From Acinetobacter boissieri (GTDB lineage: Bacteria > Pseudomonadota > Gammaproteobacteria > Pseudomonadales > Moraxellaceae), in NCBI RefSeq assembly GCF_900096955.1, contig NZ_FMYL01000003.1, forward strand, positions 1-64,000: a stretch of DNA of 64,000 nucleotides, in the 5' to 3' direction. Position numbers and translations under genes: made by a program. Below the pieces are notes generated by a model that saw nothing but the letters and a program-made list of their open reading frames with translations, did not search any database and had not been told where the DNA came from. Within the stretch, counting starts at the first letter, position 1. Each line of letters opens with the position of its first letter. Of this stretch, positions 1 through 23,337 are shown in pieces.

Positions 1-1569
1 AAGCAGGATGAACGTCAAGCCAATCATCTGATTCTACAGCGTCGCCATGTGGCCATTATTCCAGAGTACCACCCGAAACAGCACAAACCTGTTGTGCACC
101 CGCAACGTGCCAAAGTGGTTGGCCCAAGTGGTGAGGAAATTCATGTTGATGCATGGGGTCGCATTAAAGTTCGTTTTTTATTTACCCGTGCAGAAGATCA
201 CAGCCATGACAGCGGTGCAGGAAGCAATGACAATGACACCGACTCCGCTTGGGTGGATGTGCTGACGCCATGGGCAGGCGAAGGCTATGGTATGCGCCTT
301 CACCCGCGCATTGATGAAATGGTGGTCATTGACTTTTTTGATGGTGATATAGATCGCCCATTTGTATTGGGTCGTATTCATGAAGGCCAACGTCACCCTG
401 CACAATTTGATCAGGTCGGGCAGTTGCCAGAGACCAAAGTCTTGAGTGGCATTAAAACCAAAGAATACAAAGGCACAGGCTACAACCAACTGCGTTTTAA
501 TGACACGACTGGCCAAATCAGTAGCCAACTCCACAGCAGTCATGGTGCCAGTCAACTCAATTTAGGTAAGCTCAGCCACCCCAAAAAATCGGCAGACAGT
601 GCTGAGCGAGGTGAAGGCTTTGAACTTCGAACAGACCAATGGGGTGCGCTACGTGCAGGGCAAGGCTTGCTCATCTCTACGTATGCCCAATCCCAAGCCA
701 CAGGCCAACACTTAGAGAGTAGCGCTGCCAAACAACAACTCAACAATAGCTGTGACAATAGCCAAGTACTGAGTGAAGTGGCTAAAAACCAACAGACCGA
801 TCCCATTCAAAGTGTTGAACAACTCAAAGCTTTTGCTGCTCATCTGGAACAAGACATAGCCAAATTCAATCAAGCCCTGTTATTGCTCAGCTCACCAGAT
901 GGCATTGGTTTGAGTACGGCCCAAGACATTCATCTGTGTGCTAATGGTCAGATTAATCAAACTGCAGGGTCAAGTATTAATGTGAGTACACAAAGTGATT
1001 TCATTGCCCATGCACACGGCAAAATCAGTGCGCTTGCGATACAAGGTGGAATTAAAGCGGTGTCGGCAAAAGAGAAGATTGAGATTGCAGCCCATAACAA
1101 CGCTATTTCGGTATTGGCAAGGTTAGGCATAGATATTCAATCGACTGAAGATAAGATCATTTTACGCAGTAAGAAAGGGATAGAGCTTTATGGTGGTACA
1201 TCATCACTGAAAGTAGATGAAAAGATTGAGCTAAAAACCCCGGCACAGATTGAACTTAAAGCCGCACAGCATGCCTTTTTGAAAGGTGAAAAGGCACAGT
1301 TTGTGTTATCTGCCCTACCCATAACTGATTTAAAGCCCAATGATCTTGTTGTTGAGTATTTACACAGTGATGGACAACCCGTACAGGGTGCACCTTTCGA
1401 AGTTTTATTTATGGATGGTACACGTCAAAAAGGCAAACTTGATGAACATGGCAAAGCTGTTTTAAAAAATGTCCCCCAAGGCAAAGTAGTTATTCAATAT
1501 GGCGAAGATCAAAATGATCAAACATTTAAACCGAGTCCCAATGACGATTGGTTTAAAGCACTCGAATAA
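1..1569 (+). CDS. vgrG: VgrG type VI secretion spike, 3' part
   Basis: The open frame enters from the left edge (no start in the window) and ends at 1569; 522 codons are visible. The first visible part (AIIPEYHPKQHKPVV) is the end of the gp27/gp5-like core and the OB-fold region with the usual WGRIKVRF and PWAGEGYGMRLHPRIDEMVV stretches. Residues ~310-420 are the repetitive DUF2345-type beta region, followed by a transthyretin-like tail (about GAPFEVLFMDGT) that in this family binds effectors. VgrG is the puncturing tip of the T6SS and is secreted with its cargo. The next gene, 38 bp downstream, is the likely cargo effector. Family assignment is firm; delivery of this particular effector is inferred from position. 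Confidence 0.95.
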   Translation, partial: KQDERQANHLILQRRHVAIIPEYHPKQHKPVVHPQRAKVVGPSGEEIHVDAWGRIKVRFLFTRAEDHSHDSGAGSNDNDTDSAWVDVLTPWAGEGYGMRLHPRIDEMVVIDFFDGDIDRPFVLGRIHEGQRHPAQFDQVGQLPETKVLSGIKTKEYKGTGYNQLRFNDTTGQISSQLHSSHGASQLNLGKLSHPKKSADSAERGEGFELRTDQWGALRAGQGLLISTYAQSQATGQHLESSAAKQQLNNSCDNSQVLSEVAKNQQTDPIQSVEQLKAFAAHLEQDIAKFNQALLLLSSPDGIGLSTAQDIHLCANGQINQTAGSSINVSTQSDFIAHAHGKISALAIQGGIKAVSAKEKIEIAAHNNAISVLARLGIDIQSTEDKIILRSKKGIELYGGTSSLKVDEKIELKTPAQIELKAAQHAFLKGEKAQFVLSALPITDLKPNDLVVEYLHSDGQPVQGAPFEVLFMDGTRQKGKLDEHGKAVLKNVPQGKVVIQYGEDQNDQTFKPSPNDDWFKALE

Positions 1570-1607
1570 AAGTGTGCGCTAAAGAATAAATACCCGAGGA
1601 GTGGAAC

Positions 1608-3119
1608 GTGGAAAAACCACAGAATAATCAATTTTGGCAAGAAATTGCAAAACATACTGAAGCCGTGCAAAAATCTTTTTGGTATGCTGCTCAAGATTTA
1701 GCAAAACACTTAGATGATCAGCCCAAGCTATATTCAAGTTACATACAATACGATGTGAAGCAACCTGACCCGAGTTGGTCATGGTGGACAAAGCTATTTT
1801 TTTACTATGGGCAAGGTGAATATAATAAAAGCGTGACCCAGCACAATATGGTTGTGTCCTTGTCAGAAAAATCCAGTTGGATTTATGGCATGCTACAAGG
1901 CGACTTTAATAAAGATCCTACCCTATCACAGGTTGTTGTAGGGGGCATCATTAGCTTAATTCCTGTGGTAGATCAGGTATGTGATATTCGAGATTTAATA
2001 TCAAACCTCATCACACTGTCAGATGAAGGGCAAAGAAATACTGAAAACTTCATGGCACTTGCACTGACCAGTATCGGTTTAATACCCGAAGTGGGTTCAT
2101 TATTCAAAACGGTGATTAAATCCACTCAAGTCAAAGGTGCAACCAAGATTTCCTTGATTAAAACCATGGAGTCTTTAGAAACAATCACTGCCAAAGTGGG
2201 TATTCATTGCCCTTGGGGACGAGCACCTCAACGGTGGCTTCAAAATGACCCTTGGAAGCAATTGGCAACCAATGCACAGATGGTGTTGCGTAAAAATATA
2301 GATCGACTGAGTCACGTGTTAAACACACTGATATCAAAGACCATTGGGCCACTTCGAGCGAAGATACAATCTTTTTATATTGAAATCAGTAAGATTGTGA
2401 GTGCGACTGAGAAATATATTAAAGAACTTTGTGAAGAGATAAGTAGAAAAGTCAAAGAACTTTTACAAGTTCCCCATCAACCGCTTGCAATGGCGGGGCA
2501 TTCACATTCAGGGCCTAAGCCGACCAATCGTTACGAAACCAATACTGCAGGAAGTCAGCCGACACATGCACAGCATCAACAAAAAGAAACCAAACCACCA
2601 GATAAAGATAAAAAGAATAAAAATGACAAAGAACCAAGTTGTATACTCAGGCCGTACAAGCCAGATACCTGTAAACCGTTAGGGAAAACCGGCCATCATG
2701 TGGTGCCAGATCGATGTTTTAGACTGGGTGCAAGAAAAGGGGCTGAGCGTGGAGGGATTGACGGTGGTTTGACTGAAGCGGAAGGCTTGGTGATTTGTGT
2801 GGAGGGCGCAACTCCAAAACCATCAAATCAACATGGGCAAATTCATGAACAACATGACGTTTTTGAGAGGGAACTAAAGGGTTTATTTAAACCTATGGGC
2901 ACTGCAGCACTGATTGAAGTGGAAGTTGCTTGTGCGAAATCCGTAGCGTTGGTTTTAAAAAAATGCAGCGCAGCTAGTCTTGCTACACAGCTAAGAAGTT
3001 ATCATCAAAGTAAGGGTATGGGGCCTGACTTTATAGTGAGGGTAGACAATAAAGGCTATGATGCTCGAAAGATAGATGTGAAAGAGTTTGGTCACAAGAA
3101 ACGTGGGAGTGGGTATTAA
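1608..3119 (+). CDS. T6SS effector, C-terminal GHH-type nuclease toxin
   Basis: 503 aa, GTG start chosen because a strong GAGGAG ribosome-binding site lies 6 bases upstream. The N-terminal ~300 residues are helical, with a hydrophobic stretch around residues 105-125 (GGIISLIPVVDQV) like pre-toxin regions that accompany secreted toxins. A low-complexity Lys/Asp/His linker (~305-345) leads into a C-terminal domain beginning near residue 357 with TGHHVVPDRCF and later GGIDGG, HGQIHEQHD: the layout of a GHH/HNH (His-Me finger) nuclease toxin. It sits between VgrG and a gene with the expected position of an immunity protein. Function as a DNase is inferred from the GHH motif; the exact toxin subfamily is not certain. 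Confidence 0.75.
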   Translation: MEKPQNNQFWQEIAKHTEAVQKSFWYAAQDLAKHLDDQPKLYSSYIQYDVKQPDPSWSWWTKLFFYYGQGEYNKSVTQHNMVVSLSEKSSWIYGMLQGDFNKDPTLSQVVVGGIISLIPVVDQVCDIRDLISNLITLSDEGQRNTENFMALALTSIGLIPEVGSLFKTVIKSTQVKGATKISLIKTMESLETITAKVGIHCPWGRAPQRWLQNDPWKQLATNAQMVLRKNIDRLSHVLNTLISKTIGPLRAKIQSFYIEISKIVSATEKYIKELCEEISRKVKELLQVPHQPLAMAGHSHSGPKPTNRYETNTAGSQPTHAQHQQKETKPPDKDKKNKNDKEPSCILRPYKPDTCKPLGKTGHHVVPDRCFRLGARKGAERGGIDGGLTEAEGLVICVEGATPKPSNQHGQIHEQHDVFERELKGLFKPMGTAALIEVEVACAKSVALVLKKCSAASLATQLRSYHQSKGMGPDFIVRVDNKGYDARKIDVKEFGHKKRGSGY

Positions 3120-3120
3120 A

Positions 3121-4266
3121 ATGGCAAATGCAATTTCATTTACAACAGGTGTAGCGATCAGCGAAGATAATTTTTATTTAGCTTGTGTTTTAGACGAATT
3201 GGATCATTGGGATTATTATGCACGTATGTTTATATATAAACATACAGAAAGTGGTGAAGATGCCTGGTGCTATCATGATTTAGATGGTTGGGGGCTAGTT
3301 TCGACAGAATTTGTAGATAGTACTAAAGAGTTGATTACCATGAACTCTGAAGGTGATCTTGAAGTTTTAGTACCAGGCGATGAATACAATGAAAAAGTCA
3401 TTCCAAACAAAGATGAACATTTAGTTTATGGTTCATTTACTTGTCTCAAAGATTTAGGTTTTGGGGTATATGTCTGTGGAAGTGGTGGAAAGGTATATCA
3501 ACGAACTTCGGAAGGTTGGGGTAATGTTAGTTTTAACTTAGAAGAACCAATTATCGATACAAGAAAAACTAAAAAAGAAGATTTGCTTGATCTAAATAAA
3601 AGGTCAGGCTATGAGATATATTTATATGGCATTGCTGGCTTTGCCACAGACCAATTATATGTTTGTGGTCGCAACGGTGATCGAGGTTTTATTGCCTACT
3701 TTAATGGCGAGTACTGGGTTGATATTGATGCCAAAACCCCGTCTACCTTAAACAATATCATCGTGTGTGAGAACCAAACAGATATCATCGTCACTGGTGA
3801 ATATGGCACCTTACTGCAAGGCAATGTCAATACTGGCTTTAAAAATTTAAAAGACATGGGGATTAGTACTCCATTTTATAGCGCAGCTTATTATAACCAT
3901 GTACTTTATATTACCTCCGAAGATGGATTATACCGCTATGAAAATAATAGTTATAGCAAAGTCAAAGAAGTTGAACATATACGTGGCACTTCCGATGTAG
4001 AGGCCAAAGACGGCGTGTTGTGGGTGGTTGCAAACAAAGAGCTGATTCGCTTTGATGGGCAACATTGGCAAATTATTTGCTACCCTGGCAATGAAGAAGA
4101 AACAGGCCAACGCTTAAAATGTTATGCCGGCAAAGTGTGCCCAAAAACAGGGGATTGGTATAGCACCGCAAATAAGATGCAAAAACGTCATTTTAAGCAA
4201 GGTGAAGTGATGCCAGAGGTGCCAGATAATGACTGGGGTGAAACCATTTGGTATATGGATTGTTAA
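3121..4266 (+). CDS. Probable T6SS immunity protein, propeller-like
   Basis: 381 aa starting at the ATG one base after the effector stop codon; an in-frame start 33 bases upstream would overlap the effector, and GGAG lies ahead of 3121. No signal peptide or membrane segment, so a cytoplasmic protein. The sequence shows recurring short repeats of the kind GFGVYVCGSGGKVYQR, DQLYVCGRNGDRGF, DIIVTGEYGTLLQG, NHVLYITSEDGLYRY and GVLWVVANKELIRFDGQHW, spaced ~45-60 residues apart, which is a beta-propeller pattern. Position directly after the toxin gene suggests it binds and neutralises that nuclease; this is inference, no immunity family is recognised with certainty. Confidence 0.6.
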   Translation: MANAISFTTGVAISEDNFYLACVLDELDHWDYYARMFIYKHTESGEDAWCYHDLDGWGLVSTEFVDSTKELITMNSEGDLEVLVPGDEYNEKVIPNKDEHLVYGSFTCLKDLGFGVYVCGSGGKVYQRTSEGWGNVSFNLEEPIIDTRKTKKEDLLDLNKRSGYEIYLYGIAGFATDQLYVCGRNGDRGFIAYFNGEYWVDIDAKTPSTLNNIIVCENQTDIIVTGEYGTLLQGNVNTGFKNLKDMGISTPFYSAAYYNHVLYITSEDGLYRYENNSYSKVKEVEHIRGTSDVEAKDGVLWVVANKELIRFDGQHWQIICYPGNEEETGQRLKCYAGKVCPKTGDWYSTANKMQKRHFKQGEVMPEVPDNDWGETIWYMDC

Positions 4267-7081: not shown

Positions 7082-7957
7082 TCAATAATTAAGCAATAGG
7101 ATTTCTTTTGATTCTCCAGTACTTGTATTATAAGAACTGTTGTTATAATGTTTATTTAGTTCTATAACTCGATATTTCTTTGAAAACTCAAGTAGGATCT
7201 CATTTGTTTTACCTTTATGAGTCAAAACATTTGAAAGAGCAAATTTCACTTTATTTTGATTTAAATCGTCTAATGTATTTAATAAAAGTCTTTCTTGGGA
7301 AACTGTCCAATTTTTAAAACCACGATTTCCATCATTATAACTACCTGTTGTTATTAAATAAGGGGGATCGAAATATAAAAAGCTATCTTGAGTAAATTTT
7401 TGTTCCTTTAAAAAGGTATCAAAAGACTGGCAAGATATAGTAACGTCCTTTTCTTTGAGTTTGCTCACAAAACGTATTAACTTATCTTCTAAAACTTTAG
7501 AAAAATGACTGCGTTCTAATCCAAATGGATTGTTGTAATCATGATTATTATTAAAGCGAAATTGATAGTTAAATGAATAGCAGATTAACGTATATAATTT
7601 AATTGGATTTTTATCTTTGTTGTAGTCCGTACGAAGTCTCAAAAACCCCTCTTTATTTGTTTTGCTAAGACTATATTTTTCGATATAAAAATAGATAGTG
7701 TTTAGAATGTTATCAATTTCATTTTCTTTAAAAAAAGAAATAATATCTATTACATATTTATTTATGTCATTTATGAAAACTTTTTGAGCATTTATATTTA
7801 CAGCAACATTTGCTCCACCAGCAAAAATATCATAAAAATTATCTATTTTAGCTGGAAAATATGGCATCATCTGCGTGAGCAATTTAGCTTTGCCACCAAT
7901 ATAATTCATTGGACTTGCAACAATCTGCTGGTTGTTTTTTACTGTTAGTTTATTCAT
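7082..7957 (-). CDS. D12-class adenine-N6 DNA methyltransferase (second)
   Basis: 291 aa from the ATG at 7957, overlapping the end of the upstream methyltransferase by 8 bases (ATGAATAA), so translation is coupled. Motifs of the Dam/DpnII-type D12 class: NYIGGKAKLL near the N-terminus, the SAM-binding IFAGGANVAVN, and catalytic FDPPYLITTGSYND. The target-recognition region between them is unlike that of its neighbour. Two D12 enzymes side by side are typical when a restriction enzyme recognises an asymmetric site and each strand needs its own methylase. The recognition sequence cannot be read from the protein. Confidence 0.9.
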   Translation of the reverse strand: MNKLTVKNNQQIVASPMNYIGGKAKLLTQMMPYFPAKIDNFYDIFAGGANVAVNINAQKVFINDINKYVIDIISFFKENEIDNILNTIYFYIEKYSLSKTNKEGFLRLRTDYNKDKNPIKLYTLICYSFNYQFRFNNNHDYNNPFGLERSHFSKVLEDKLIRFVSKLKEKDVTISCQSFDTFLKEQKFTQDSFLYFDPPYLITTGSYNDGNRGFKNWTVSQERLLLNTLDDLNQNKVKFALSNVLTHKGKTNEILLEFSKKYRVIELNKHYNNSSYNTSTGESKEILLLNY

Positions 7958-8987
7958 GGTTTTGTTTCTCAATATAAAATAAATATTCGTTTACTTTAGG
8001 CTTCAAAACAATTTTTGACTTATAACGACGATATTCAATTTCCATGAAATCATAAGTTTCGGGAATACCTACAGATAGTAAAATTTCTTGAATCTGTTCT
8101 TTATTTAAAAGTCCATCAGAATTATAGCTTAAAAACAAGTGTTTACAATTAACTTGCACCAGAACTTTTTTAAAAGCATTATAAACTTTTGACTTTTTAC
8201 AAAAATCAGAAGTTTCATTATCGTCAAATCGTCTAATACCTGTAACACCTTTTATAACAGGGTTATCATATTTAGCAATTGTTTCTAATAAATGGTAGTT
8301 TGAGGTGTACTGTCTGCCGTTATAAGGTGGGTCTATATAACAAATATCAGCTCTTATACTGTGAGTGATATTTTCAGCTTTACTGTTAAAGGATTCGTTG
8401 ATTTTATTATTATTGTACAAAATGGGATGTTTAAGGACCAAATCTTTAAATGCTCGTTTATCCCAATGTTTTAGATAAGCGCCGTAAGTTCCTGTAATAT
8501 TAGACACAAAAGGAACCGCTTCTATTAGTGTTGCTAATAAGTATTCAAATTCTTCGTGATTGATATGTTTTTTATTTAACCATAGATCTAAAGTAAGTCG
8601 AATATCATCAATTTTTCGAGCATTTTTAGGAGTCAAATACATACGCCCATTGCTATCACTCGCATAATTAGATTCAATAAAACCCATTTGACCAGATAAA
8701 TTATTTAAATAATCAAGAGGATCATGTATTCCTAGTTTAATTAGGCCTGTAAATTTTGGTACATTATTGGGTGTGACATATCCTTTAGCTAGAATGTATG
8801 AAAAATAAAGTGAATCATTCGTTATAACCTTGAAGTATTTCTTGAAATGATAGGCTACAACTCCTGTTCCTGAAAATAAATCTAAAAAAATTTTATTGCC
8901 ATGGTTATTAACTTTTTTCAATATCATGTTTTCAATTTCACTGAGCAATTTTGTTTTGCCACCAATATACCGCATAAAAACATCCAA
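7950..8987 (-). CDS. D12-class adenine-N6 DNA methyltransferase (first)
   Basis: 345 aa; starts at 8987 with AGGA upstream, or 12 bases later at MRYIGGKTK. Motifs: MRYIGGKTKLLSEIE, SAM-binding LFSGTGVVAY, catalytic CYIDPPYNGRQY. First gene of the leftward block methylase-methylase-HTH, divergent from the putative nuclease at 9060 with 72 bp between. The gene is visibly more AT-rich than the virion genes, a sign of separate acquisition. The enzyme protects host or phage DNA from the partner nuclease by methylating adenine; partner and specificity are inferred from arrangement. Confidence 0.9.
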   Translation of the reverse strand: MDVFMRYIGGKTKLLSEIENMILKKVNNHGNKIFLDLFSGTGVVAYHFKKYFKVITNDSLYFSYILAKGYVTPNNVPKFTGLIKLGIHDPLDYLNNLSGQMGFIESNYASDSNGRMYLTPKNARKIDDIRLTLDLWLNKKHINHEEFEYLLATLIEAVPFVSNITGTYGAYLKHWDKRAFKDLVLKHPILYNNNKINESFNSKAENITHSIRADICYIDPPYNGRQYTSNYHLLETIAKYDNPVIKGVTGIRRFDDNETSDFCKKSKVYNAFKKVLVQVNCKHLFLSYNSDGLLNKEQIQEILLSVGIPETYDFMEIEYRRYKSKIVLKPKVNEYLFYIEKQNHE

Positions 8988-8999
8988 TTACATCCTACT

Positions 9000-9026
9000 T
9001 ATATCATATTCTATGAATTTGATATA
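9000..9026. promoter_or_regulatory. Inverted repeat in the divergent methylase/nuclease promoter region
   Basis: TATATCA-N13-TGATATA is a perfect 7-bp inverted repeat centred between the divergent genes. It contains CATATTCT (9005-9012), the same half-site as the HTH operator at 7057, followed by GAATTTG, an imperfect mate. It may be the site through which the HTH protein times nuclease versus methylase expression. Confidence 0.5.
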
Positions 9027-9059
9027 GTCAATTTCTAAATTGTAGTACATGGGAATAAA

Positions 9060-10457
9060 ATGTTCAAAAACCAAAACTTATGGATACTAACGGAAGAGTA
9101 TCCTAAACCAACTGTTATTCAAATGATTGTAGGTACGTTTTGCCAAGATAGAGGTAATGGTGTCTTTTTTGATAATATTAGAATTATTCCGATTTTGGAT
9201 AAAAATAATTTTTTATTTACCTATGAGATTCTGGGTATAAATACACCTTTAATAAACAAAATATTTATTAAAATAGCTACAGGGTATTCAAGTTTTGTGG
9301 ATTTTTTAGTCTTTTATCAAGATTATGAACCCACCCAATTAGACATTCCTGTTTATGTTATAGAGGAGACGAAGACAACTGATAAAGAAAGTCGTAATAC
9401 AGGAGTATCTCAAAGATCATCTAAATTTAGCTATGTTCACTCATTTTATCCAAATGCACAAAAAATAATGCTTTATTCTTTACGGAATGAAGAAAATCAA
9501 ACGTTGAGTGATACCAATATTTTTGGTAGTCGTTTACTTACTACACAAGGAGTTCGTATTTTAGGGAAAAATCGTACTGACTTTTTACCTTTTACGAGTA
9601 TTGATGAGCTAATTTCGGCTAAAAATAGTATGAGGAATCCACCCGCAGGTAATGTTCCTATAAAAATCACTCAGTATGAAAATAAAATACAAATATCAGG
9701 CAGGCTTTTCAAGAGTGATAGTTTATCTCATGATCCCAATATAGGTACTCTAAGTTCTATTGCTTATACATTACGGGTACTCGGGTATCAAGGACAAATA
9801 GAGATTACACATCATGGGTTATTTCAGAAACACGTCCAAAATGGCAAAAATAAATTTATTAGAATTGCTCAAATATTGGGTATAACCTTGGAAGGTTTAC
9901 AGCTTCCATCTCAAATAGCTCAGGTTGATTATTGGCGATATGATACGAAAGGTGAAAAGTTAGGTACAATATTTATTCACTTGTTGGTAGAAAATTTTTC
10001 TGAAGGATTTTCGATATTTGATAACCATGCCGGTTCTGAAAAAGGTTATTTTTTTACACCTGATGGGCAGTACTTGTCTTTAATAAAGTATGAAGCCGAA
10101 AATAGAGAAGCCTATAAAGCAGGCGATAAGACTAAAATAGTATATATTCCTGACTTAATTCTTTTGGATCCTAAACAGATGGAGGTGATCAATGTTGAGG
10201 GTAAAGTATATTCAAATATGCTTAAAGGAATTAGTGAGTTAAATAATTATGATCCAGTTGAAAGGCTTTATATTAATAGGTACTATCCAGATTTCAAAGT
10301 TCTAAGAACAGTTGTTTTATATGGAAGTTTCGAAAATCAAATCACTAGAGCTGAGGTAAGCTTCTTGCTAAATAAAGATGGAAATTTAATTTTAGGAATA
10401 CAAGCGCCTGATTTATTTAAAAGAGCATTACAAAACTTGTACTCTTATTGGCACTGA
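9060..10457 (+). CDS. Putative type II restriction endonuclease
   Basis: 465 aa, GGGA 8 bases ahead of the ATG. I do not recognise the family by overall sequence. Two stretches could be a PD-(D/E)xK nuclease centre: FVDFLVF ... VYVIEETKTTD (about residues 85-110) and YIPDLILLDP ... VINVEGKVYS (about residues 365-385), the latter having PD followed by EGK. The gene is divergent from two D12 methyltransferases and sits on the same AT-rich insert, the classic arrangement of a type II system with an asymmetric site. Assignment as the nuclease is by context plus these motifs. It has no late box and the insert separates two virion transcription units. Confidence 0.6.
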   Translation: MFKNQNLWILTEEYPKPTVIQMIVGTFCQDRGNGVFFDNIRIIPILDKNNFLFTYEILGINTPLINKIFIKIATGYSSFVDFLVFYQDYEPTQLDIPVYVIEETKTTDKESRNTGVSQRSSKFSYVHSFYPNAQKIMLYSLRNEENQTLSDTNIFGSRLLTTQGVRILGKNRTDFLPFTSIDELISAKNSMRNPPAGNVPIKITQYENKIQISGRLFKSDSLSHDPNIGTLSSIAYTLRVLGYQGQIEITHHGLFQKHVQNGKNKFIRIAQILGITLEGLQLPSQIAQVDYWRYDTKGEKLGTIFIHLLVENFSEGFSIFDNHAGSEKGYFFTPDGQYLSLIKYEAENREAYKAGDKTKIVYIPDLILLDPKQMEVINVEGKVYSNMLKGISELNNYDPVERLYINRYYPDFKVLRTVVLYGSFENQITRAEVSFLLNKDGNLILGIQAPDLFKRALQNLYSYWH

Positions 10458-10595: not shown

Positions 10596-11894
10596 ATGAC
10601 AGCATTAGCCGTCGGGGTTTTAACCAGTGGTCAACTCGTTACAGTAAAGGACAGTACCGCAACATTGCAGATTGACTATGATTTACATAGTTACTTAGGT
10701 AGTGATGTTGAGCTACAAGTCAAGTTTTCATCAAAAGTGATGACACCGACTACAGGTAGCCAGATTGTTTGTCAGTTACGTTGGGTTGATACAGCGACAG
10801 ATACTTTGATTTACCAGGTGCAAGGTACACTTAATGATGATGAAGATGATTATGCGTCATTATGGAGTATTGCAGGTGCAACTGAGTATTTTAAATCTTT
10901 TGAAATTACATACAATAATGCCACGCTTATCACGGCGATCACGTCAAGTAGTGCTTATAATAGCTTAAATAGTTTAAGTAAGAATGTTACAACCTTTGCA
11001 TTAGCAGATGATCAACCAAGTGCATTTGATGCAGACCAAGCCTTCAATTTACTCACTACTTTACGTAATCGACCATCAGATATTGCAATCATTGGTCTTC
11101 AAAACTTGAGTGTATATAACACTATTCTTAGAGCTTTAGATCAACTTAATATTCCTTTTACCATTGAGTTAGATCCCACATTAACCATAGACCAAGCAGT
11201 GGCTATCGCAAATTCCCTTGATGCGAATGATCATCGAGTACAGTTAATTTGGTCGCCGAATCTTTGTCGCCCACGTGATGCAATATCTTTACGTGGTCGT
11301 AAAAAGCCTGCTTATGCTATGGGTATGTACCTTGGGTATAAGGCTCTGCGAAATGCCAACGTCACGGCAAAAGGTATCCCTCCGATTGGTACACCCATAG
11401 CAGGTGCAGATTATCCATTCTCACTCAAATCGATTGAACAGCGTGCTGATATTGTTTTTGGCCCACAAGAGTTAGAGCAATTGGCAGTGGCTAAAATCAA
11501 TGTAGTACGCCTAGAAAATTATGATATTGGCGAGCGCTTTGTACTTAGTGATGTACTCACACAATATCAAAGTAAAGACAGTGCATTGCGTATCGTGAAT
11601 GCTGCAGAAATTACCTGTTATACCGAAAATAAAGTCATCGATATTCTGAAACGTCACATGCTTAAAAAAACTGACCGTTTTTTAACAGAAGCCGGGCGAG
11701 ATATCACGACATTCCTTAACAACTGTGTGTCAGCAGACTTACTCAAAAATGCATCTGATCTTGGCGGTAAGCCGTATGCATTTAAATTAGAAGAAGATGA
11801 GCAGTACCCTTTTGAGAGAGTTCGATTATATCTAGCACGCCGTGTTGTTGGTGCTGTTCGTTCAGTTGTATTTGATGATGTCATTGTAAAATAA
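10596..11894 (+). CDS. Contractile tail sheath protein
   Basis: 432 aa. AGGGGT ribosome-binding site. The C-terminal third has the features of tail sheath proteins: INVVRLENYDIGERFVLSD, then LRIVNAAEITCYTENK, KKTDRFLTEAGRDITTFLN and the end PFERVRLYLARRVVGAVR, i.e. the conserved fold that interlocks sheath subunits. The N-terminal half is beta-rich and divergent. The sheath contracts to drive the tube through the cell envelope, so the element codes for a myovirus-type or tailocin-type tail. It is followed after 12 bp by the 255-aa gene in the same unit. Unlike many phages, the tube-type gene is not adjacent. Confidence 0.8.
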   Translation: MTALAVGVLTSGQLVTVKDSTATLQIDYDLHSYLGSDVELQVKFSSKVMTPTTGSQIVCQLRWVDTATDTLIYQVQGTLNDDEDDYASLWSIAGATEYFKSFEITYNNATLITAITSSSAYNSLNSLSKNVTTFALADDQPSAFDADQAFNLLTTLRNRPSDIAIIGLQNLSVYNTILRALDQLNIPFTIELDPTLTIDQAVAIANSLDANDHRVQLIWSPNLCRPRDAISLRGRKKPAYAMGMYLGYKALRNANVTAKGIPPIGTPIAGADYPFSLKSIEQRADIVFGPQELEQLAVAKINVVRLENYDIGERFVLSDVLTQYQSKDSALRIVNAAEITCYTENKVIDILKRHMLKKTDRFLTEAGRDITTFLNNCVSADLLKNASDLGGKPYAFKLEEDEQYPFERVRLYLARRVVGAVRSVVFDDVIVK

Positions 11895-16153: not shown

Positions 16154-16801
16154 ATGATTCAAAGTAATCCAATCTTACTTAATCAGCTGAAAAATGACTA
16201 TTTAGCCATTCAACAACAAGGATCACCACTACTTGCATGCCAAGGCATGCTTGTACCTCGTGGCATGGAAGATATGCGACTTTTGATTAAAGGTTCGATG
16301 CGTCCAATTGTCTCGAATGGTGATCCGGCTGAAGTAGCTTATGCTGGTGGATTTATGGGCATTGTTGCAGGTGTGCCACATACAAAATATAGCGGTAACT
16401 TACAAATGATTGTGACAGAAGCAGGCCATGATCAAAAATTTGCAGAATATATTGTTGCCAGCGGTGGCATGATTGACTGTGATTACTATGATGGCCGTAT
16501 TGATCGATTTACAGCAGTTTATGAGTTATTAAACTGCGCTATTCGTTTTGAACAAGCTGAATTTGATTCAGAAAGTAAATCCCAAGTCATGCATATCTCA
16601 TGCCCGTGTGATTATAACTATTTCGGTAATTTTGCGAGTGTAGGAACAAATGGCACAGTCCAACCAGGGGCGTTAAATGTAGATGGCGCACAAAGCTTAA
16701 CCAATCGTGTGCAAAGTGTCATTAATACAGCGAATGCGGCAGTGGGCGTTGCAAACTCCATCAATGGCGTTGCTCGATCTCTTGGCTCATTGTTTGGATA
16801 A
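16154..16801 (+). CDS. Virion protein, possibly tail tube or hub component
   Basis: 215 aa. A beta-rich body (GMEDMRLLIKGSMRPIVSNG, SGNLQMIVTEAG, DRFTAVYELLNCAIRFEQAE) followed by a Gly/Ala/Asn C-terminal tail (residues ~185-215, VINTANAAVGVANSINGVAR). The body is consistent with a tube-fold protein, and the Gly/Ala tail recalls hub-associated proteins in this element (see 37928). One FDS tripeptide is present (residues ~137-139). First gene of a three-gene unit. Assignment is tentative. Confidence 0.45.
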   Translation: MIQSNPILLNQLKNDYLAIQQQGSPLLACQGMLVPRGMEDMRLLIKGSMRPIVSNGDPAEVAYAGGFMGIVAGVPHTKYSGNLQMIVTEAGHDQKFAEYIVASGGMIDCDYYDGRIDRFTAVYELLNCAIRFEQAEFDSESKSQVMHISCPCDYNYFGNFASVGTNGTVQPGALNVDGAQSLTNRVQSVINTANAAVGVANSINGVARSLGSLFG

Positions 16802-18234: not shown

Positions 18235-20046
18235 ATGGCTTACGAATATAACTCTAAAGATCAACGTTTTGAATTTCCTAATCCTTATAAAATAGAAAAT
18301 ATATTTAAATTTTTAGGGGCAACTCTTTTTATTTTATCGGGTGTTTTATTGTTGCTTAATGCAAAAAATGCATTGAGTGGTGGACCAATCATTGCAGCGA
18401 TACCTTTGGTCATGGGTATTATGATGTTGATTTATGGTGGTTTGTTACTAACTAAAGGGCTATCTAATTTAAAGTTTTATTTTGGTCGTGATCAGCCTGC
18501 CAGTTTAGCTCCTGAGTATTCTGATCAAGAGATAGGTATTAGCCAAAATGCGCAGCGTATTAAAGATCTTCTTCGACAAAGTGCACTGAGTTATCATGAG
18601 CCAAGAGGTCCAATTAACGGTATTTTATATAGTCTTTTCCCTAACCTTATTTTTTCACCTTTATTTATTCGAAATGCAGCAGAAGTTCAATTTCAAAGTG
18701 CAATTGTTTTTATAATTACGCTGATTAGTGCATTGGTGACCAAAATGGGAGCATCTGGAAATGCATTAGATTGGTTGGGTATATTTTATAATATTTTGAC
18801 ATTATTTGTTTTAGTCAAACCAATGGGGCATACGGGGTCAAGCTCATATAATATTGAAATATTCAAAGTTGTTGCATTAATTGTGCTTGCGATTATTGGG
18901 CCTGTTGTGATTCCAATGCTAACACATAATGCAATTGCTCCAGCGTGGTTACCAAGCATGGGTAAAGCTATTTTTATACTTGTTATGGCACTCGTTGCGA
19001 TCGGAATATTTTTCCTAGCAGTCATTTCTCAAATGGTGAAGAGTCCACCTCCAGCAAATGCAGGTATGGTACAAGATAGCATGAGTATGAATTGTCAACC
19101 TATGCAAATATTTGATGAATTGGAGAGAAACCTTCAAGACCAATGGGTGAGCTCGATACCAAATCGTATCTATTCTAGAATATTGCCAATCTTAGAAAAT
19201 AATAAAGATCGTGGAACATTTGAGGGTGAAATATTAGAAGAAACACAACCTGTACCAGCCAATACTTTAAAGGATATGACATTTGCATCATGTTTTAAAG
19301 AAAAATACTATCGTTGGTTAGGTGTTTTGAACAGTTTTGGACTTCTATGTTTTTTTGCATCAGTGATTTTATTGAGTATGTTTACAAAAGGCATCTATAA
19401 TGGTCACTATCTAGATATGTCTTATTTTAGTCTTGGCTTTTTGGGTATATCACTATGGATATTAGGAAGATTTTGTTTTACTCATGGTAGCTATTTATGG
19501 AGCCGGTTTGATTTTGTATCCAAGCTGATTTGGGTAGAGGTCAAAGGAAATTATCAAGCATCACAAATGAATTTTGGTCGTTATTTGGAAGATACTGTTA
19601 AGACTCAAAAAGAAGTAATCAATGTGGAAACAATGACGATTCGAGTATGGGTTGCTGAAATTGCAACAACAGCTTTTGGTAAGTTCAAAGATCGAAGTAT
19701 TCTAAGTATGGTTGCATGTAAAGATGATGCCGTTCAGTTGAAAGATCACTTGGTATATTTTGCACAGGAACAAAGTTTAATTATTGCTCCAACAGCTAAT
19801 AGTGATTTAGATAAATTATCAACATTAAATCAAATCAATGCTTCAGTACATAAATCAGTTGATCATTCTAAAATATCTGGATTATCTTCTAATAAGTCTC
19901 ATGATAGCGTGTTAGGGGGGCATCAAGCCAAACAAGATGAAAGTGAGCCTCATGAAATGCCGATAAAGAGTAGCTTTTGTACATCATGTGGCTTCAAGTT
20001 AGAAACTAACATGGCATTTTGTCCGCAATGTGGTACAAAAAAATAG
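18235..20046 (+). CDS. Polytopic membrane protein with C-terminal zinc ribbon
   Basis: 603 aa, AGGGGT ahead of the ATG. About eight hydrophobic segments: near residues 24-44, 54-76, 142-180 (two), 183-198, 212-232, 242-266, 365-388 and 398-418. A soluble C-terminal part ends in a zinc ribbon with CTSCG and CPQCG separated by ~14 residues (positions ~582-600). It lacks the late box found before the virion units and has its own terminator, so it appears to be an independently expressed insert. Possible roles are superinfection exclusion or host-membrane modulation; none is shown by a motif. The lack of long coiled coil argues against tape measure. Confidence 0.6.
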   Translation: MAYEYNSKDQRFEFPNPYKIENIFKFLGATLFILSGVLLLLNAKNALSGGPIIAAIPLVMGIMMLIYGGLLLTKGLSNLKFYFGRDQPASLAPEYSDQEIGISQNAQRIKDLLRQSALSYHEPRGPINGILYSLFPNLIFSPLFIRNAAEVQFQSAIVFIITLISALVTKMGASGNALDWLGIFYNILTLFVLVKPMGHTGSSSYNIEIFKVVALIVLAIIGPVVIPMLTHNAIAPAWLPSMGKAIFILVMALVAIGIFFLAVISQMVKSPPPANAGMVQDSMSMNCQPMQIFDELERNLQDQWVSSIPNRIYSRILPILENNKDRGTFEGEILEETQPVPANTLKDMTFASCFKEKYYRWLGVLNSFGLLCFFASVILLSMFTKGIYNGHYLDMSYFSLGFLGISLWILGRFCFTHGSYLWSRFDFVSKLIWVEVKGNYQASQMNFGRYLEDTVKTQKEVINVETMTIRVWVAEIATTAFGKFKDRSILSMVACKDDAVQLKDHLVYFAQEQSLIIAPTANSDLDKLSTLNQINASVHKSVDHSKISGLSSNKSHDSVLGGHQAKQDESEPHEMPIKSSFCTSCGFKLETNMAFCPQCGTKK

Positions 20047-20065: not shown

Positions 20066-20097
20066 AAAACACCTCTTATCTTAGGAGGTGTTTTTTT
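20066..20097 (+). terminator. Terminator after the membrane protein gene
   Basis: AAAACACCTC and GAGGTGTTTT form a perfect stem followed by a T-run. It isolates the membrane protein gene from box P5. Confidence 0.9.
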
Positions 20098-20120: not shown

Positions 20121-20161
20121 TTGGAATACTTAAAAATCACCGATAAAAAAGGTCTTACGCT
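20121..20161 (+). promoter_or_regulatory. Late-type promoter box P5 (variant)
   Basis: TTGGAATA (one change from consensus), CTTAAAAA, then 27 bases to TACGCT. Weakest of the series. Confidence 0.4.
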
Positions 20162-20186
20162 ATATCTATCTAAATAATCGGTATAG
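20160..20186 (+). other. Leader hairpin of paralogue 1
   Basis: CTATATC pairs with GGTATAG (one G-U pair) across 13 bases, just ahead of the start codon at 20191. Equivalent hairpins precede the two other paralogues. Confidence 0.4.
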
Positions 20187-20190
20187 ATGT

Positions 20191-21294
20191 ATGACTACAA
20201 AGATATTAGGCGAGGCAGTTGGAGTTCAGTGGCAAGGGGTGCAAGACCGCACACAAGGGCAACCATCTTCTAATGGTGTACCGTTGTTGGTTGGTTCTTT
20301 TAAGCGAGGTCGTACTGATAAACCAATGCTTATTCACAATGGCAATATTAAATCTGAATTAGGATATGAGCCACATAATCCTGATTATATTGCTGTACAG
20401 TCTATGCTTGATATGGGGGTATCCAACATCAATGTATTAAAAGTGAATAGTCAAAAACAAGAAAGTGAATTACCTATACCTGCTGTACCACCAAGTACAA
20501 ATATTAGCTGTGATGGGGCAATGCCTATAGCAGTTTTTTCTCTAAAATCTAAAACTACTTACGGGTTTGGTGGAATGTTTTTATCCGTGACGGATAAAGA
20601 CAACAACAGGATTGATTTAGCACCAGATGTATACTCATTAACACAACCAGCCAACAAGGACAAATACCCATTCAGGGTATTTGTGGATAATCTAACTGAT
20701 GGTGATGGTTTTATCTCTACCTTATACTTTTTCGTAAATGATGATACGTGCCGAATTACAGATTTATCTTTTATCGAAAATTGGCAAGTGAGTGATAAAA
20801 ATACAAACCCATGTATTTATACAAAAAGTGATGGAAGCGGTAAGAAAATTTATGATATTTGTTTAAAACAAGAAGTTTTAGAAAGTACATATCTAGCTTC
20901 AAATAGTGCCATCATTCGCTTATTTGTTAAAAATAATAATGATTATGCTGACAACATTGGGTTAAACAGATCCTATTCAGTAAATGGTATAAATTTTGAT
21001 AGGTTTATGGAGTTTTTACCAACGTCTGAAATCGCAATATATTACGATTTGATCTATTTAGGCTACAAAGTAAATTTAATTGAATCTACTGATGGTGTAT
21101 ATATTTACGATTTGGTTATTACAAATACCGATAAAATGGATTTAGACATCAAAAATATGTTTTTTGATATTAAATCCAAGTATCCCCAGTATGAGACTTA
21201 TTGGCAGAAGCCACCTGAGATATCACCACTCAACACCAACAAAACGCTCACATTAACAGATACCGGGTTTAATTTTACTTTACTTCCAATTTAG
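20191..21294 (+). CDS. Sheath-N-domain paralogue 1 with large variable C-terminus
   Basis: 367 aa. Residues 1-84 are nearly identical to those of the proteins at 21366 and 22750. They include GVPLLVGSFKRGRTDKPM, GNIKSELGYEPHNPDYIAV and NVLKV, the order of elements seen in the N-terminal domain of tail sheath proteins (a VG..KRG...P start, a register motif, then VLRV). After residue ~90 the sequence is unique: a beta-rich ~275-residue region with AVFSLKSKTTYGFGGMFLSV, weakly shared with paralogue 3 (PISVFEI...GMFLS). Probably a virion surface or tail-tip protein with an exchangeable outer domain. No tail-fibre gene is seen elsewhere, so these could be the receptor-binding proteins. Confidence 0.5.
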   Translation: MTTKILGEAVGVQWQGVQDRTQGQPSSNGVPLLVGSFKRGRTDKPMLIHNGNIKSELGYEPHNPDYIAVQSMLDMGVSNINVLKVNSQKQESELPIPAVPPSTNISCDGAMPIAVFSLKSKTTYGFGGMFLSVTDKDNNRIDLAPDVYSLTQPANKDKYPFRVFVDNLTDGDGFISTLYFFVNDDTCRITDLSFIENWQVSDKNTNPCIYTKSDGSGKKIYDICLKQEVLESTYLASNSAIIRLFVKNNNDYADNIGLNRSYSVNGINFDRFMEFLPTSEIAIYYDLIYLGYKVNLIESTDGVYIYDLVITNTDKMDLDIKNMFFDIKSKYPQYETYWQKPPEISPLNTNKTLTLTDTGFNFTLLPI

Positions 21295-21296
21295 TA

Positions 21297-21337
21297 TTGG
21301 AACATCTAAAAATAATTAATTAGTAGCATATTAATCT
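21297..21337 (+). promoter_or_regulatory. Late-type promoter box P6
   Basis: TTGGAACA (21297-21304), TCTAAAAA, then 27 bases to TAATCT, with TATTAA three bases earlier as an alternative -10. Confidence 0.6.
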
Positions 21338-21359
21338 ATACCTATTGAAAAACAGGTAT
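21338..21359 (+). other. Leader hairpin of paralogue 2 covering the ribosome-binding site
   Basis: ATACCTATT and AACAGGTAT pair (one mismatch) around a GAAA loop. The AGG in the 3' arm is the only plausible ribosome-binding site for the ATG at 21366, so the hairpin would hide it. Confidence 0.5.
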
Positions 21360-21365
21360 GAATAG

Positions 21366-21977
21366 ATGACTACAAAAGTACTCGGTGAAGCGGTAGGGAT
21401 CCAGTGGCAGGGTGTACAAGATCATACACAGGGGCAACCATCTTCTAATGGTGTGCCCTTGCTGATTGGTTCATTTAAACGTGGGCGAATTGATAAGCCA
21501 ATGATTATTCATAATGGGAATATTCGGTCTGAGCTAGGATATGAACCTGATCGCTCAGACTATCTTGCAGTGCAATCTATGCTTGATATGGGTGTGCCAA
21601 ATGTGAATGTATTACGAGTTGCAAATGGTGTAAATGCCGTTACATATCTTGAGATGAGTTTTGGTACTATTGCTGATGCAGATATTGGACGTATTGTTGT
21701 CATTAATCTCAATGGAACTGACTTCTCTAAATTAATTACATCACAAGATGTGATTCAATATGGCAATAGTTTGAATAACTTTATTTCTAATATTTTTAAC
21801 TATTTTAACTTAACGAATACAATTTCTTGTTATGACGACAGTGGTAATGGCGAAGGGAAAGAACATTTGGTTTTTCAAAATGTAACATCTCAAGATGCAA
21901 AAATGATGATAAAAGTTGGTGATAAAGTGATATTGCCTACAGTGGTATTTTTTGCTGCAGTTAATTCTAGTTTATGA
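21366..21977 (+). CDS. Sheath-N-domain paralogue 2, paired with a glycosyltransferase
   Basis: 203 aa. Residues 1-84 match paralogues 1 and 3 (GIQWQGVQDHTQGQPSSNG, then VPLLIGSFKRGRIDKPM). Residues ~90-203 are unlike either: VTYLEMSFGTIADADIGR, DFSKLITSQDVIQYGNSLNN, and a Cys-containing CYDDSGNGEGKEH. The stop overlaps the start of a glycosyltransferase gene (ATGA), so the two products are made together and the enzyme may act on this or another virion protein; that link is inferred from coupling only. The promoter, hairpin and first ~250 coding bases are duplicated between the cassettes. Confidence 0.5.
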   Translation: MTTKVLGEAVGIQWQGVQDHTQGQPSSNGVPLLIGSFKRGRIDKPMIIHNGNIRSELGYEPDRSDYLAVQSMLDMGVPNVNVLRVANGVNAVTYLEMSFGTIADADIGRIVVINLNGTDFSKLITSQDVIQYGNSLNNFISNIFNYFNLTNTISCYDDSGNGEGKEHLVFQNVTSQDAKMMIKVGDKVILPTVVFFAAVNSSL

Positions 21978-22654
21978 AAATTTCTTTTTGTACCACGTGT
22001 AAAGGTCGTCTTTGGCAACTAAAAAAAACAATTGCCCATAATATCAAGCAACTTGATGATGAGTGTGAGATTGTTTTATTGGATTACAAATCGAATGATG
22101 GGCTAAAAAATTATATTTTTAGTGAGTATTTAAACGAACTCAAAATGGGAAAGCTTAAATACTTTGAAATGGTTCATGAGTATGCATATACATCAAGTTA
22201 TGCCAAAAATGTGGCCCATCGTCTTGCTCGTGGTAAAGTTTTATTCAATCTTGATGCAGATAACTTTATCTATGATGGTTTAATTGATGAGCTGAAGACT
22301 CTAACAGAAAATCAATTATTTTTGCCAAAACTCACCGGCCATTATGATGAGGGATGCTATGGCCGCATTGGTTACTCTAGAAAAGCCTTTTATCGATTGA
22401 ATGGCTATAATGAAAATATTATAGGTATGAAAGCAGATGATGGTGATTTGAGAAAACGAGCCATTCCTTTAAGACTTATTCCGATCCATGCACAGCAGTC
22501 AACAACGGCGATTCAAAATACACGTCAACAAAAGGATATTTATACTACAGACAACCCAAACAATACATTAACAAACCCACCGTTGAAAATGGTAGATGAA
22601 TGGGGGTATGCACTCGTTTTGGATTGGCAGGGACGTACATTTCTTACTATATAA
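21974..22654 (+). CDS. Family 2-type glycosyltransferase
   Basis: 226 aa. GT-A fold features: start KISFCTTCKGRLWQLKKTI, a nucleotide-binding ECEIVLLDYKSNDG, and the metal-binding LFNLDADNFIYDG (DxD) at residue ~95. GRIGYSRKAFYRLNGYNENI and MKADDGDLRKRA correspond to the acceptor-loop and ED/DD region of galactosyltransferase-like enzymes. Residues after ~175 look non-conserved. No membrane segment. It is translationally coupled to paralogue 2 inside a virion operon, which suggests modification of a virion or host-surface structure late in infection. Confidence 0.75.
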   Translation: MKISFCTTCKGRLWQLKKTIAHNIKQLDDECEIVLLDYKSNDGLKNYIFSEYLNELKMGKLKYFEMVHEYAYTSSYAKNVAHRLARGKVLFNLDADNFIYDGLIDELKTLTENQLFLPKLTGHYDEGCYGRIGYSRKAFYRLNGYNENIIGMKADDGDLRKRAIPLRLIPIHAQQSTTAIQNTRQQKDIYTTDNPNNTLTNPPLKMVDEWGYALVLDWQGRTFLTI

Positions 22655-22680
22655 ATTGAATATAGATGATCTTTATAACT

Positions 22681-22721
22681 TCGGAACATTACCAAATAGT
22701 TTTGTGTAAAGGTATTAACCT
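22681..22721 (+). promoter_or_regulatory. Late-type promoter box P7
   Basis: TCGGAACA (22681-22688), CCAAATA, then 27 bases to TAACCT, with TATTAA three bases earlier as in P6. Confidence 0.55.
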
Positions 22722-22743
22722 ATGTCTATTGAAAAATAGGTAT
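22722..22743 (+). other. Leader hairpin of paralogue 3 covering the ribosome-binding site
   Basis: ATGTCTATT pairs with AATAGGTAT (two G-U pairs) around GAAA. Compared with the hairpin at 21338 the bases differ at two stem positions while pairing is kept. The AGG of the 3' arm lies 9 bases from the ATG at 22750. Confidence 0.5.
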
Positions 22744-22749
22744 GAATAG

Positions 22750-23337
22750 ATGACAACAAAAGTACTCGGTGAAACGGTAGGGATTCAGTGGCAGGGTGTG
22801 CAAGATCGTACACAGGGACAGCCAACGAGTAATGGTATGCCGTTGCTGATTGGTTCGTTCAAACGAGGTCGTCTTGATAGGCCGATGATTATTCATAATG
22901 GGAATATTCAGTCTGAATTAGGTTATGAGCCGCATAATCCTGATTATATCGCTGTACAGTCTATGCTTGATCTGGGCGTGCCAAGCGTTAGTGTGCTGAG
23001 GCTGTCAAATGTACAAGATATGGATTGTATTAATCCTATCTCCGTATTTGAAATACCAGGCGATTCTGATGGTATGTTTTTGTCTGCTATTTCTGCTTTT
23101 GAAATAAAGGGTACGCTTTACAACGTGCCTAGTCAGCTAGGATCTATCGACCAGCTAATTTCTTTTGAACAGATTAAAAAAAGAGTGGACTATCCTGATG
23201 GTGGCTGGGATTGGAAATATGTTATTCAGATTTATAATTTAACTTCTAAAAATATGAAAGTGAAGCTGTATATCAGTGGGGATTTATCTGCGGAATTTTG
23301 TTTGTTGCCATCACCGAATGATTCAAGAGTCCAATAA
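22750..23337 (+). CDS. Sheath-N-domain paralogue 3 with short variable C-terminus
   Basis: 195 aa. Residues 1-84 match the other two copies (MTTKVLGETVGIQWQGVQDR, QPTSNGMPLLIGSFKRGRLD). Residues ~90-195 form a compact beta-domain with PISVFEIPGDSDGMFLSAIS, related by eye to the same region of paralogue 1, then DYPDGGWDWKYVIQIYN. Followed after 18 bp by the spike gene, so its product is probably made in the same proportion as spike and may sit at the tail tip. Confidence 0.5.
   Translation: MTTKVLGETVGIQWQGVQDRTQGQPTSNGMPLLIGSFKRGRLDRPMIIHNGNIQSELGYEPHNPDYIAVQSMLDLGVPSVSVLRLSNVQDMDCINPISVFEIPGDSDGMFLSAISAFEIKGTLYNVPSQLGSIDQLISFEQIKKRVDYPDGGWDWKYVIQIYNLTSKNMKVKLYISGDLSAEFCLLPSPNDSRVQ

What the first reader, a model, noticed from the sequence alone, without database searches (positions are those of the whole stretch)
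20121..23337. Three tandem cassettes: same promoter, leader and sheath-like N-domain, different C-terminal domain
At 20191, 21366 and 22750 the first 84 residues are nearly identical and resemble the start of a sheath protein, but the C-termini are of 275, 115 and 105 residues and largely unrelated (1 and 3 share a short motif). Each has its own late box and leader. No tail-fibre gene is seen in the element. This looks like a modular display array in which a common docking domain presents exchangeable outer domains, perhaps for receptor choice, decoration or effector delivery.
Basis: partly seen in the sequence, partly recalled or inferred. Interest (0 to 1): 0.75.

Follow-up and report, generated by a model that had tools for sequence, protein, structure and literature searches.

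The report
Swappable domains on split tail sheath
A family of bacterial viruses seems to have detached the first domain of its contractile tail-sheath protein and to use that loose piece as a plug that carries different, exchangeable domains onto the outside of the tail.

Summary
The three genes are real: their first ~84 residues are about 80% identical, each has the phage's late box, and the C-termini differ. The shared domain is the missing piece of the phage's own sheath. The window's sheath gene (10596-11894) lacks the first ~100 residues of P1-type one-chain sheaths; the shared domain matches exactly that part (5 of 5 one-chain sheaths; modelled, residues ~31-101 of P1 gp22). Relatives often carry it as a separate 91-105-aa gene, in three contigs directly 5' of the sheath, in frame, one stop codon between. 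All 31 Moraxellaceae genomes with a 430-503-aa sheath frame have a separate N-domain; one with a 547-aa one-chain sheath does not. Further copies, and in the window all three, are fused to varied payloads (some LRR, DUF285 or lectin). In P1 gp22 the chain turns to its outward domain III where the split falls, so payloads should stand on the tail surface. Split sheath: strong. Display: likely, not shown. Purpose: open. 'No tail fibre' is an edge effect: a collar-fibre gene lies on another contig.

The parts
10596..11894 (+). tail sheath body (432 aa) that lacks the N-terminal ~100 residues of one-chain sheaths
   Evidence: PHROG 1036 tail sheath, residues 17-431 on profile 109-530 of 531, E 4e-96; alignment with one-chain sheaths
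20121..20128 (+). late box of cassette 1 (a second box at 20096)
20191..20442 (+). cassette 1: sheath N-domain (84 codons)
20443..21291 (+). cassette 1: payload, 283 aa, no Pfam family
21297..21304 (+). late box of cassette 2
21366..21617 (+). cassette 2: sheath N-domain
21618..21974 (+). cassette 2: payload, 119 aa, no Pfam family
21974..22654 (+). glycosyltransferase-like gene (GT2 families), overlaps cassette 2 by 4 nt
   Evidence: PF10111 and PF00535 above cut-off
22681..22688 (+). late box of cassette 3
22750..23001 (+). cassette 3: sheath N-domain
23002..23334 (+). cassette 3: payload, 111 aa; distant match to a ~105-aa payload module of relatives
   Evidence: blastp 26% over 86 aa to a G132 module, E 6e-9 in a 39-sequence set; borderline with the module profile
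16154..16801 (+). tail tube protein with the same late box at 71 nt
   Evidence: PHROG 1120

Best explanation
The phage has a two-chain (split) tail sheath. The 432-aa product of 10596-11894 is the sheath body without the N-terminal arm and the first half of domain II. The shared N-domain supplies that piece in trans and completes each sheath subunit. In many relatives a solo N-domain gene does this. In the window's genome every N-domain copy found carries a C-terminal payload, so each incorporated N-domain brings a payload with it. The chain leaves the N-domain where P1 gp22 enters its outward domain III, so payloads should stand on the outside of the tail. Separate late promoters let several payload types be made together with sheath and tube, giving a mosaic surface, and payloads are replaced by recombination next to a conserved docking domain. 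Shown by computation: the split, the complementarity, the co-occurrence, the variation of payloads, purifying selection on the N-domain. Inferred: assembly in trans, surface position, use of the payloads for adhesion or receptor contact.
For: Sheath body matches PHROG 1036 only from position 109 and the N-domain matches its positions 6-65 weakly (E 0.001-0.007). The N-domain profile hits the extreme N-terminus of 5 of 5 one-chain sheaths (i-E 3e-7 to 9e-14); hhalign puts it on residues 6-98, E 3e-10, and the body on 164-533, E 9e-26. In L034, L035 and L036 the solo N-domain gene and the sheath gene are in one frame with a TAA and 0-6 nt between them. Family-wide, 31 of 31 genomes with a 430-503-aa sheath frame have a separate N-domain, and the 547-aa one-chain sheath of G156 has it in cis only. 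ABMM1, with this split arrangement, is infectious and shows relaxed and contracted tails (PMC10345192, passages). P1 gp22 domain borders: arm 3-34, domain II from 35 to 99, outward domain III from 100 (PMC10304247, passages). Same late box and spacing as sheath and tube. dN/dS 0-0.21 in the 16 within-genome N-domain pairs computed. DNA identity is high over the N-domain and drops directly after it in nine of nine pairs. Payload length differs at ten of ten loci at one site. Some payloads are LRR_5, DUF285 or Laminin_G_3.
Against: No virion proteomics or structure of the split form. The body profile alone does not find P1 gp22 (i-E 0.29); the link runs through the one-chain relatives. Fold matches of the N-domain model are modest: Foldseek best E 3e-3, VIA-align Z 4.4-6.2 for the first eleven rows, a range that the tool says may reflect only a common arrangement. 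Co-variation is not very specific: N-domain/sheath Spearman 0.83, N-domain/tube 0.73, and 11 of 34 copies in multi-copy phages have their nearest relative in another phage. None of the three window payloads has a Pfam or NCBIfam family. Several same-site payloads are related to each other rather than wholly unrelated.
Confidence: 0.72

Rival explanations
1. Position-specific docking: fused N-domains occupy only one ring (next to the baseplate or the terminator), so a few payload copies are shown as fibre-like appendages, while the rest of the sheath uses a solo N-domain.
For: Ten of 18 genus genomes with both genes also have a solo copy. [quoted passage not shown]
Against: Eight of 18, the window's genome included, have only fused copies, two of them on contigs that match plasmid records in length (G115, G023), so the whole sheath would have to use them. 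G004 (fragmented assembly) could hide a solo copy.
Confidence: 0.15
2. The payloads are the phage's main receptor-binding proteins, with the sheath N-domain borrowed as an anchor.
For: Payload turnover at a constant site resembles receptor-binding protein evolution; LRR, DUF285 and lectin-type domains suit ligand binding.
Against: The element has a tail-collar fibre gene on C23; ABMM1 has a collar fibre and only a solo N-domain.
Confidence: 0.08
3. The window's array is a decaying remnant: the solo N-domain was lost and the fusions are no longer functional.
For: No solo N-domain gene is found in G000; a methylase and possible restriction module occupies the stretch 5' of the sheath where several relatives have the solo gene.
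Against: N-domain dN/dS 0.04-0.10 between the window copies with dS above 1; intact frames and late boxes; other fusion-only elements exist.
Confidence: 0.05

Closest known systems
P1 gp22 tail sheath (PDB 8jaj, 8jan, 9ay3; PHROG 1036)
   Same: One-chain relatives of the split sheath match gp22 over its whole length (E 1e-28) and in fold (E 8e-27); the N-domain corresponds to gp22 residues ~8-101.
   Different: gp22 is one protein (PMC10304247); here the N-terminal ~100 residues are a separate, duplicated gene fused to payloads.
Type VI secretion sheath TssB/TssC (VipA/VipB)
   Same: A contractile sheath built from two polypeptides (PMC9230969, passages).
   Different: No Pfam match of N-domain or body to any family, T6SS sheath families included, at E up to 1; no payload-bearing small subunit is known to me (recalled).
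Phage sheaths with extra outer (often Ig-like) domains
   Same: Additional beta-rich domains carried away from the tube, proposed to help adhesion (PMC9230969, passages).
   Different: There the domains are inserted in one chain; here they sit on a separate, multi-copy subunit and vary between close relatives.
T4 Hoc-type head decoration
   Same: Conserved docking domain plus variable outer domains (PMC10385173, search listing and start of abstract only).
   Different: Hoc sits on the head; here the docking part is an integral sheath piece.

Membership tests
P1-type contractile tail sheath (PHROG 1036) | sheath body sequence | tested here: met
   window 10596-11891, E 4e-96, profile 109-530 of 531
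P1-type contractile tail sheath (PHROG 1036) | N-terminal arm and first part of domain II in the same chain | tested here: not met
   absent from the window's sheath ORF; present in trans in three cassettes
P1-type contractile tail sheath (PHROG 1036) | sheath fold | tested here: met
   met for a one-chain relative (model pLDDT 85, P1 gp22 first, E 8e-27); for the N-domain alone the fold match is modest; the window's body was not modelled
P1-type contractile tail sheath (PHROG 1036) | assembly into contractile rings | not testable with these tools
   only indirect: ABMM1 tails relaxed and contracted in micrographs (PMC10345192, passages)
T6SS TssB/TssC sheath | sequence membership in the Pfam T6SS sheath families | tested here: not met
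   0 Pfam families at E up to 1 for the body and the N-domain
Phage tail-collar fibre (PF12571) | fibre N-terminal domain in the cassettes | tested here: not met
   no Pfam family at E up to 1 in the three cassettes; the domain is in L226:10190-11824
Exchangeable display proteins (works like, not membership) | constant docking domain with variable payload between relatives | tested here: met
Exchangeable display proteins (works like, not membership) | payload exposed on the virion surface | not testable with these tools
   inferred from P1 gp22 domain borders (PMC10304247)

The most novel reading that the evidence does not exclude
A whole phage tail sheath used as a plug-in display scaffold: in fusion-only phages such as this one every sheath subunit is completed by an N-domain that carries a payload, so the tail bears one to a few hundred copies of two or three interchangeable, possibly glycosylated binding domains, in a mosaic whose make-up is set by separate late promoters and renewed by recombination at the split point.
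Probability: 0.5. Interest if true: 0.88.

Novelty: new variant of a known kind. Interest (0 to 1): 0.78.

Why it matters
A split phage tail sheath with a mobile N-terminal subunit would be a phage counterpart of the two-chain type VI sheath and would show that a contractile machine tolerates bulky, swappable cargo on its outside. It gives an identity to the N-terminal part of three PHROG families of unknown function (14345, 5283, 24956). It makes questions testable: how sheath lattices carry extra domains through contraction, what phages gain from decorating their tails, and how display domains are recruited. The split point is also a natural place to display proteins on contractile particles in laboratory systems.

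Tried and rejected
Rejected: recent gene conversion among the window copies. Third codon positions are only 54-64% identical while second positions are 92-94%. A recent event does fit G113, where two N-domains about 30 kb apart are 99% identical in DNA and carry different payloads.

Rejected as evidence: a looser iterative profile of the payload module (inclusion 0.1) drew in shuffled decoys, so only the strict search is used (19 hits in 17 proteins, two of them at E 0.006-0.009, no decoy among 780 shuffles at E 0.01). There payload 3 is borderline (i-E 0.059; best decoy 0.37) and payloads 1 and 2 are at noise level. A short motif chosen by eye occurs in 12 of 39 payloads against 0.23 in shuffles, but it was drawn partly from payloads 2 and 3 and is circular for them.

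Led nowhere: genome contigs with the three window copies; solved structures with the N-domain profile (chance-level hits); NCBIfam for sheath and cassettes; sigma-70 scan of the cassette region (9 found, 16.8 expected) and terminators (0 found, 1.6 expected); tRNAs in window 1-45000 (none). No fold is claimed for the payload module: Foldseek gave no PDB match at E 0.001 and VIA-align rows for it are Z 4.4 or less and mixed. Paper searches on split or decorated sheaths and this phage group listed nothing on this arrangement; apart from passages of PMC10304247, PMC9230969, PMC10345192 and PMC3322345 only listings and starts of abstracts were seen.

Dropped or partial: L033/L149 is the window's own assembly (same coordinates), was left out of the N-domain tree and is not an independent relative. 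Several IMG/VR contigs repeat G genomes; payloads were de-duplicated by exact sequence only (39 left). One-chain relatives: 65 of the 80 loci were checked and 2 dropped for stops; 61 of the 63 were aligned. Pfam: 20 of the 36 payload fusions from outside the window. Same-site test: ten loci that I chose. dN/dS: four multi-copy phages with the most diverged copies (G018, G023, G119, IMGVR2565) were not included. Moraxellaceae sheaths outside the window's genus were counted, not inspected one by one; G175 has a 219-aa sheath fragment and no N-domain.
Full report
Observation. The three ORFs exist as described, at 20191-21294, 21366-21977 and 22750-23337. Their N-terminal ~84 residues are 76-84% identical, depending on pair and span, without gaps; the tails are 283, 119 and 111 aa. 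Each has the phage's late box T(T/C)GGAA(C/T)A 69-70 nt before the start. The same box stands 69-72 nt before sheath, tube, g26305, the darB-like gene and g37928, 59 before the capsid gene and 51 before the portal gene. There are 12 such boxes on the coding strand and 4 on the other between 4001 and 42300; one of the 12 is inside a gene, and cassette 1 has a second one at 95 nt. So the cassettes are predicted to be expressed with sheath and tube. Only cassettes 2 and 3 share a leader. A glycosyltransferase-like gene overlaps the end of cassette 2.

Where it is. The window is the start of contig C11 of a 2.69-Mb genome. Two genomes of its genus have contigs of 76,885 and 71,539 bp that agree in length and N-domain position with plasmid records of Acinetobacter defluvii and Acinetobacter sp. 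WCHA55, so I take the host to be Acinetobacter. The element is P1-related: a ddrB-like ParB domain, an Hdf-type PHROG, a 2111-aa gene that I call darB-like from size and place (recalled; P1 darB is listed) and sheath relatives that match gp22. The window holds only part of it: terminase, collar fibre, wedge and tail genes like those of ABMM1 are on contig C23.

What the shared domain is. Three PHROG families of unknown function share it, and it weakly matches the start of the tail-sheath family PHROG 1036 (positions 6-65, E 0.001-0.007). The window's sheath matches the same family from position 109 onward (E 4e-96). A profile of the N-domain finds the extreme N-terminus of all five one-chain sheaths fetched from Pseudomonas, Burkholderia and Xanthomonas plasmids and a phage (539-550 aa). 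hhalign places it on residues 6-98 (E 3e-10) and the body on 164-533 (E 9e-26) of that alignment. Against P1 gp22 a profile that joins cis and trans N-domains aligns with residues 8-92 (i-E 6e-9 in a one-sequence search) and the trans-only profile with 9-66 (3e-5); the body profile alone finds nothing significant there (0.29), so the link of the body to gp22 runs through the one-chain family, which matches gp22 end to end (E 1e-28). Modelled with a payload, the N-domain superposes on P1 gp22 33-100 (rmsd 2.6, Z 5.4) and on the same region of KP1, phiKZ and phiCD508 chains; the first eleven rows are chains of contractile-tail or sheath entries, at modest Z of 4.4-6.2. A one-chain relative modelled whole (pLDDT 85) matches P1 gp22 first (E 8e-27). 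So in this clade the sheath is split into two polypeptides.

The split is systematic. In the genus, 19 of 175 genomes have the N-domain and 19 of 175 the sheath. Eighteen have both. G103 has only the N-domain: no sheath match in the genome and no tube gene in the 40 kb read. G156 has a 547-aa one-chain sheath with the N-domain at its start. Across the family, 33 of 348 genomes match each query: all 31 with a 430-503-aa sheath frame have a separate N-domain; the other two sheath matches are G156 and a 219-aa fragment in G175 that has none. Elsewhere one-chain sheaths are the rule: 63 of 65 checked viral-contig loci read open through the match, in frames of 540-649 aa. In L034, L035 and L036 the solo N-domain gene and the sheath gene are in the same frame with one TAA and 0-6 nt between them; in L038, L041 and L048 they are adjacent in other frames. 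In ABMM1 the solo gene stands two genes downstream. ABMM1 is infectious, has relaxed and contracted tails in micrographs, and its authors list two 'tail sheath proteins' without further comment in the passages I saw (PMC10345192), so a split sheath evidently works. Which of its proteins were found by mass spectrometry is not in those passages.

Payloads. Of the 18 genus genomes with both, ten have a solo copy and eight, the window's included, have only fused copies; one of the eight, G004, is a fragmented assembly. The 39 distinct payloads of 30 aa or more run from 39 to 1169 aa. Of 20 fusions outside the window scanned with Pfam, four have BspA-type LRR_5, two DUF285 and one Laminin_G_3 above the cut-offs; the window's three have none. 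Two have long proline-rich linkers after the N-domain. A ~105-aa module that begins near ISC and ends near FCL gives 19 hits in 17 payloads; in a model it folds as a confident beta-rich domain joined to the N-domain by a low-confidence linker. At one conserved site, just after the g38743 homologue, the ten loci that I examined carry ten different ORF lengths, 201-531 aa. These payloads are not all unrelated: five of the ten begin with closely related copies of the module (about 41-82% identity) and differ in what follows, such as a lectin-type domain in L209. Within phages, DNA identity is 70-100% per 60 nt across the N-domain, 31-51% in the 60 nt that contain its end, and 16-41% after that, in nine of nine pairs. 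All 16 within-genome pairs computed are under purifying selection (dN/dS 0-0.21). Copies mostly cluster by phage (nearest relative in the same phage for 23 of 34), which fits each N-domain having to match its own sheath, though shared ancestry explains part of it.

Mechanism. In P1 gp22 the N-terminal arm (3-34) makes the handshake with the neighbour's C-terminus, residues 35-99 open domain II, and domain III (100-242) extends outside the sheath; 53 rings of six give 318 subunits (PMC10304247, passages). The split therefore falls where the chain turns outward. The likely mechanism: body and N-domain associate to complete a subunit; the arm in the N-domain makes the handshake, so the N-domain should be needed for assembly; whatever is fused after it stands on the tail surface. 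In fusion-only phages all subunits would carry a payload; where a solo copy exists the ratio would follow expression. Everything after 'split' is inference.

Glycosylation. A glycosyltransferase-like gene overlaps or lies within 15 nt downstream of a fusion gene in four of about 26 phages with fusions: the window, G113, contig 3300046519_000323 and G076. Three have Pfam GT2 matches; the one of G113 matches the window gene at 32% but no Pfam family. This suggests that some payloads are glycosylated; untested.

Novelty. Two-chain sheaths are known in type VI secretion, and extra outer domains in one-chain phage sheaths (PMC9230969, passages). My library searches listed nothing on a split phage sheath or on sheath N-domains as carriers of exchangeable domains; nearly all full texts were unread. 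I file it as a new variant of the contractile sheath.

Noticed in passing
window 1-4266: The contig starts inside a VgrG-type gene (Pfam T6SS_Vgr, DUF2345, Phage_base_V), followed by a 503-aa and a 392-aa gene without confident families, just before the phage capsid gene; possibly a cargo island at a repeat that broke the assembly.
   Followed up: partly
window 7082-10457: Two minus-strand genes that look by eye like DNA adenine methylases and a 465-aa gene without family sit 5' of the sheath, where several relatives have the solo N-domain gene; possibly a restriction-modification module.
   Followed up: no
L032:16609-26964; also L049-L052: In ABMM1-like phages the spike homologue (162 aa in the window) is the start of a protein of 3451 aa in L032; in L049-L052 the frame runs to the edge of the stretch read at 1965-2569 aa.
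   Followed up: no
window 18235-20046: 603-aa protein with hydrophobic N-terminal stretches and a C-terminal zinc ribbon (PF13240, just above cut-off), no late box, placed between tail genes and the cassettes: looks like cargo.
   Followed up: no
L226:7619-10189: The terminase gene on contig C23 has an 856-aa frame and matches ABMM1's 663-aa terminase in two pieces, as if an intein were inserted.
   Followed up: no
window 20160-20190, 21335-21365, 22719-22749: The stretch just before each cassette start can be paired by eye into a short hairpin around the ribosome-binding site (ATACCT..AGGTAT in cassette 2); possible translational control, not folded.
   Followed up: no
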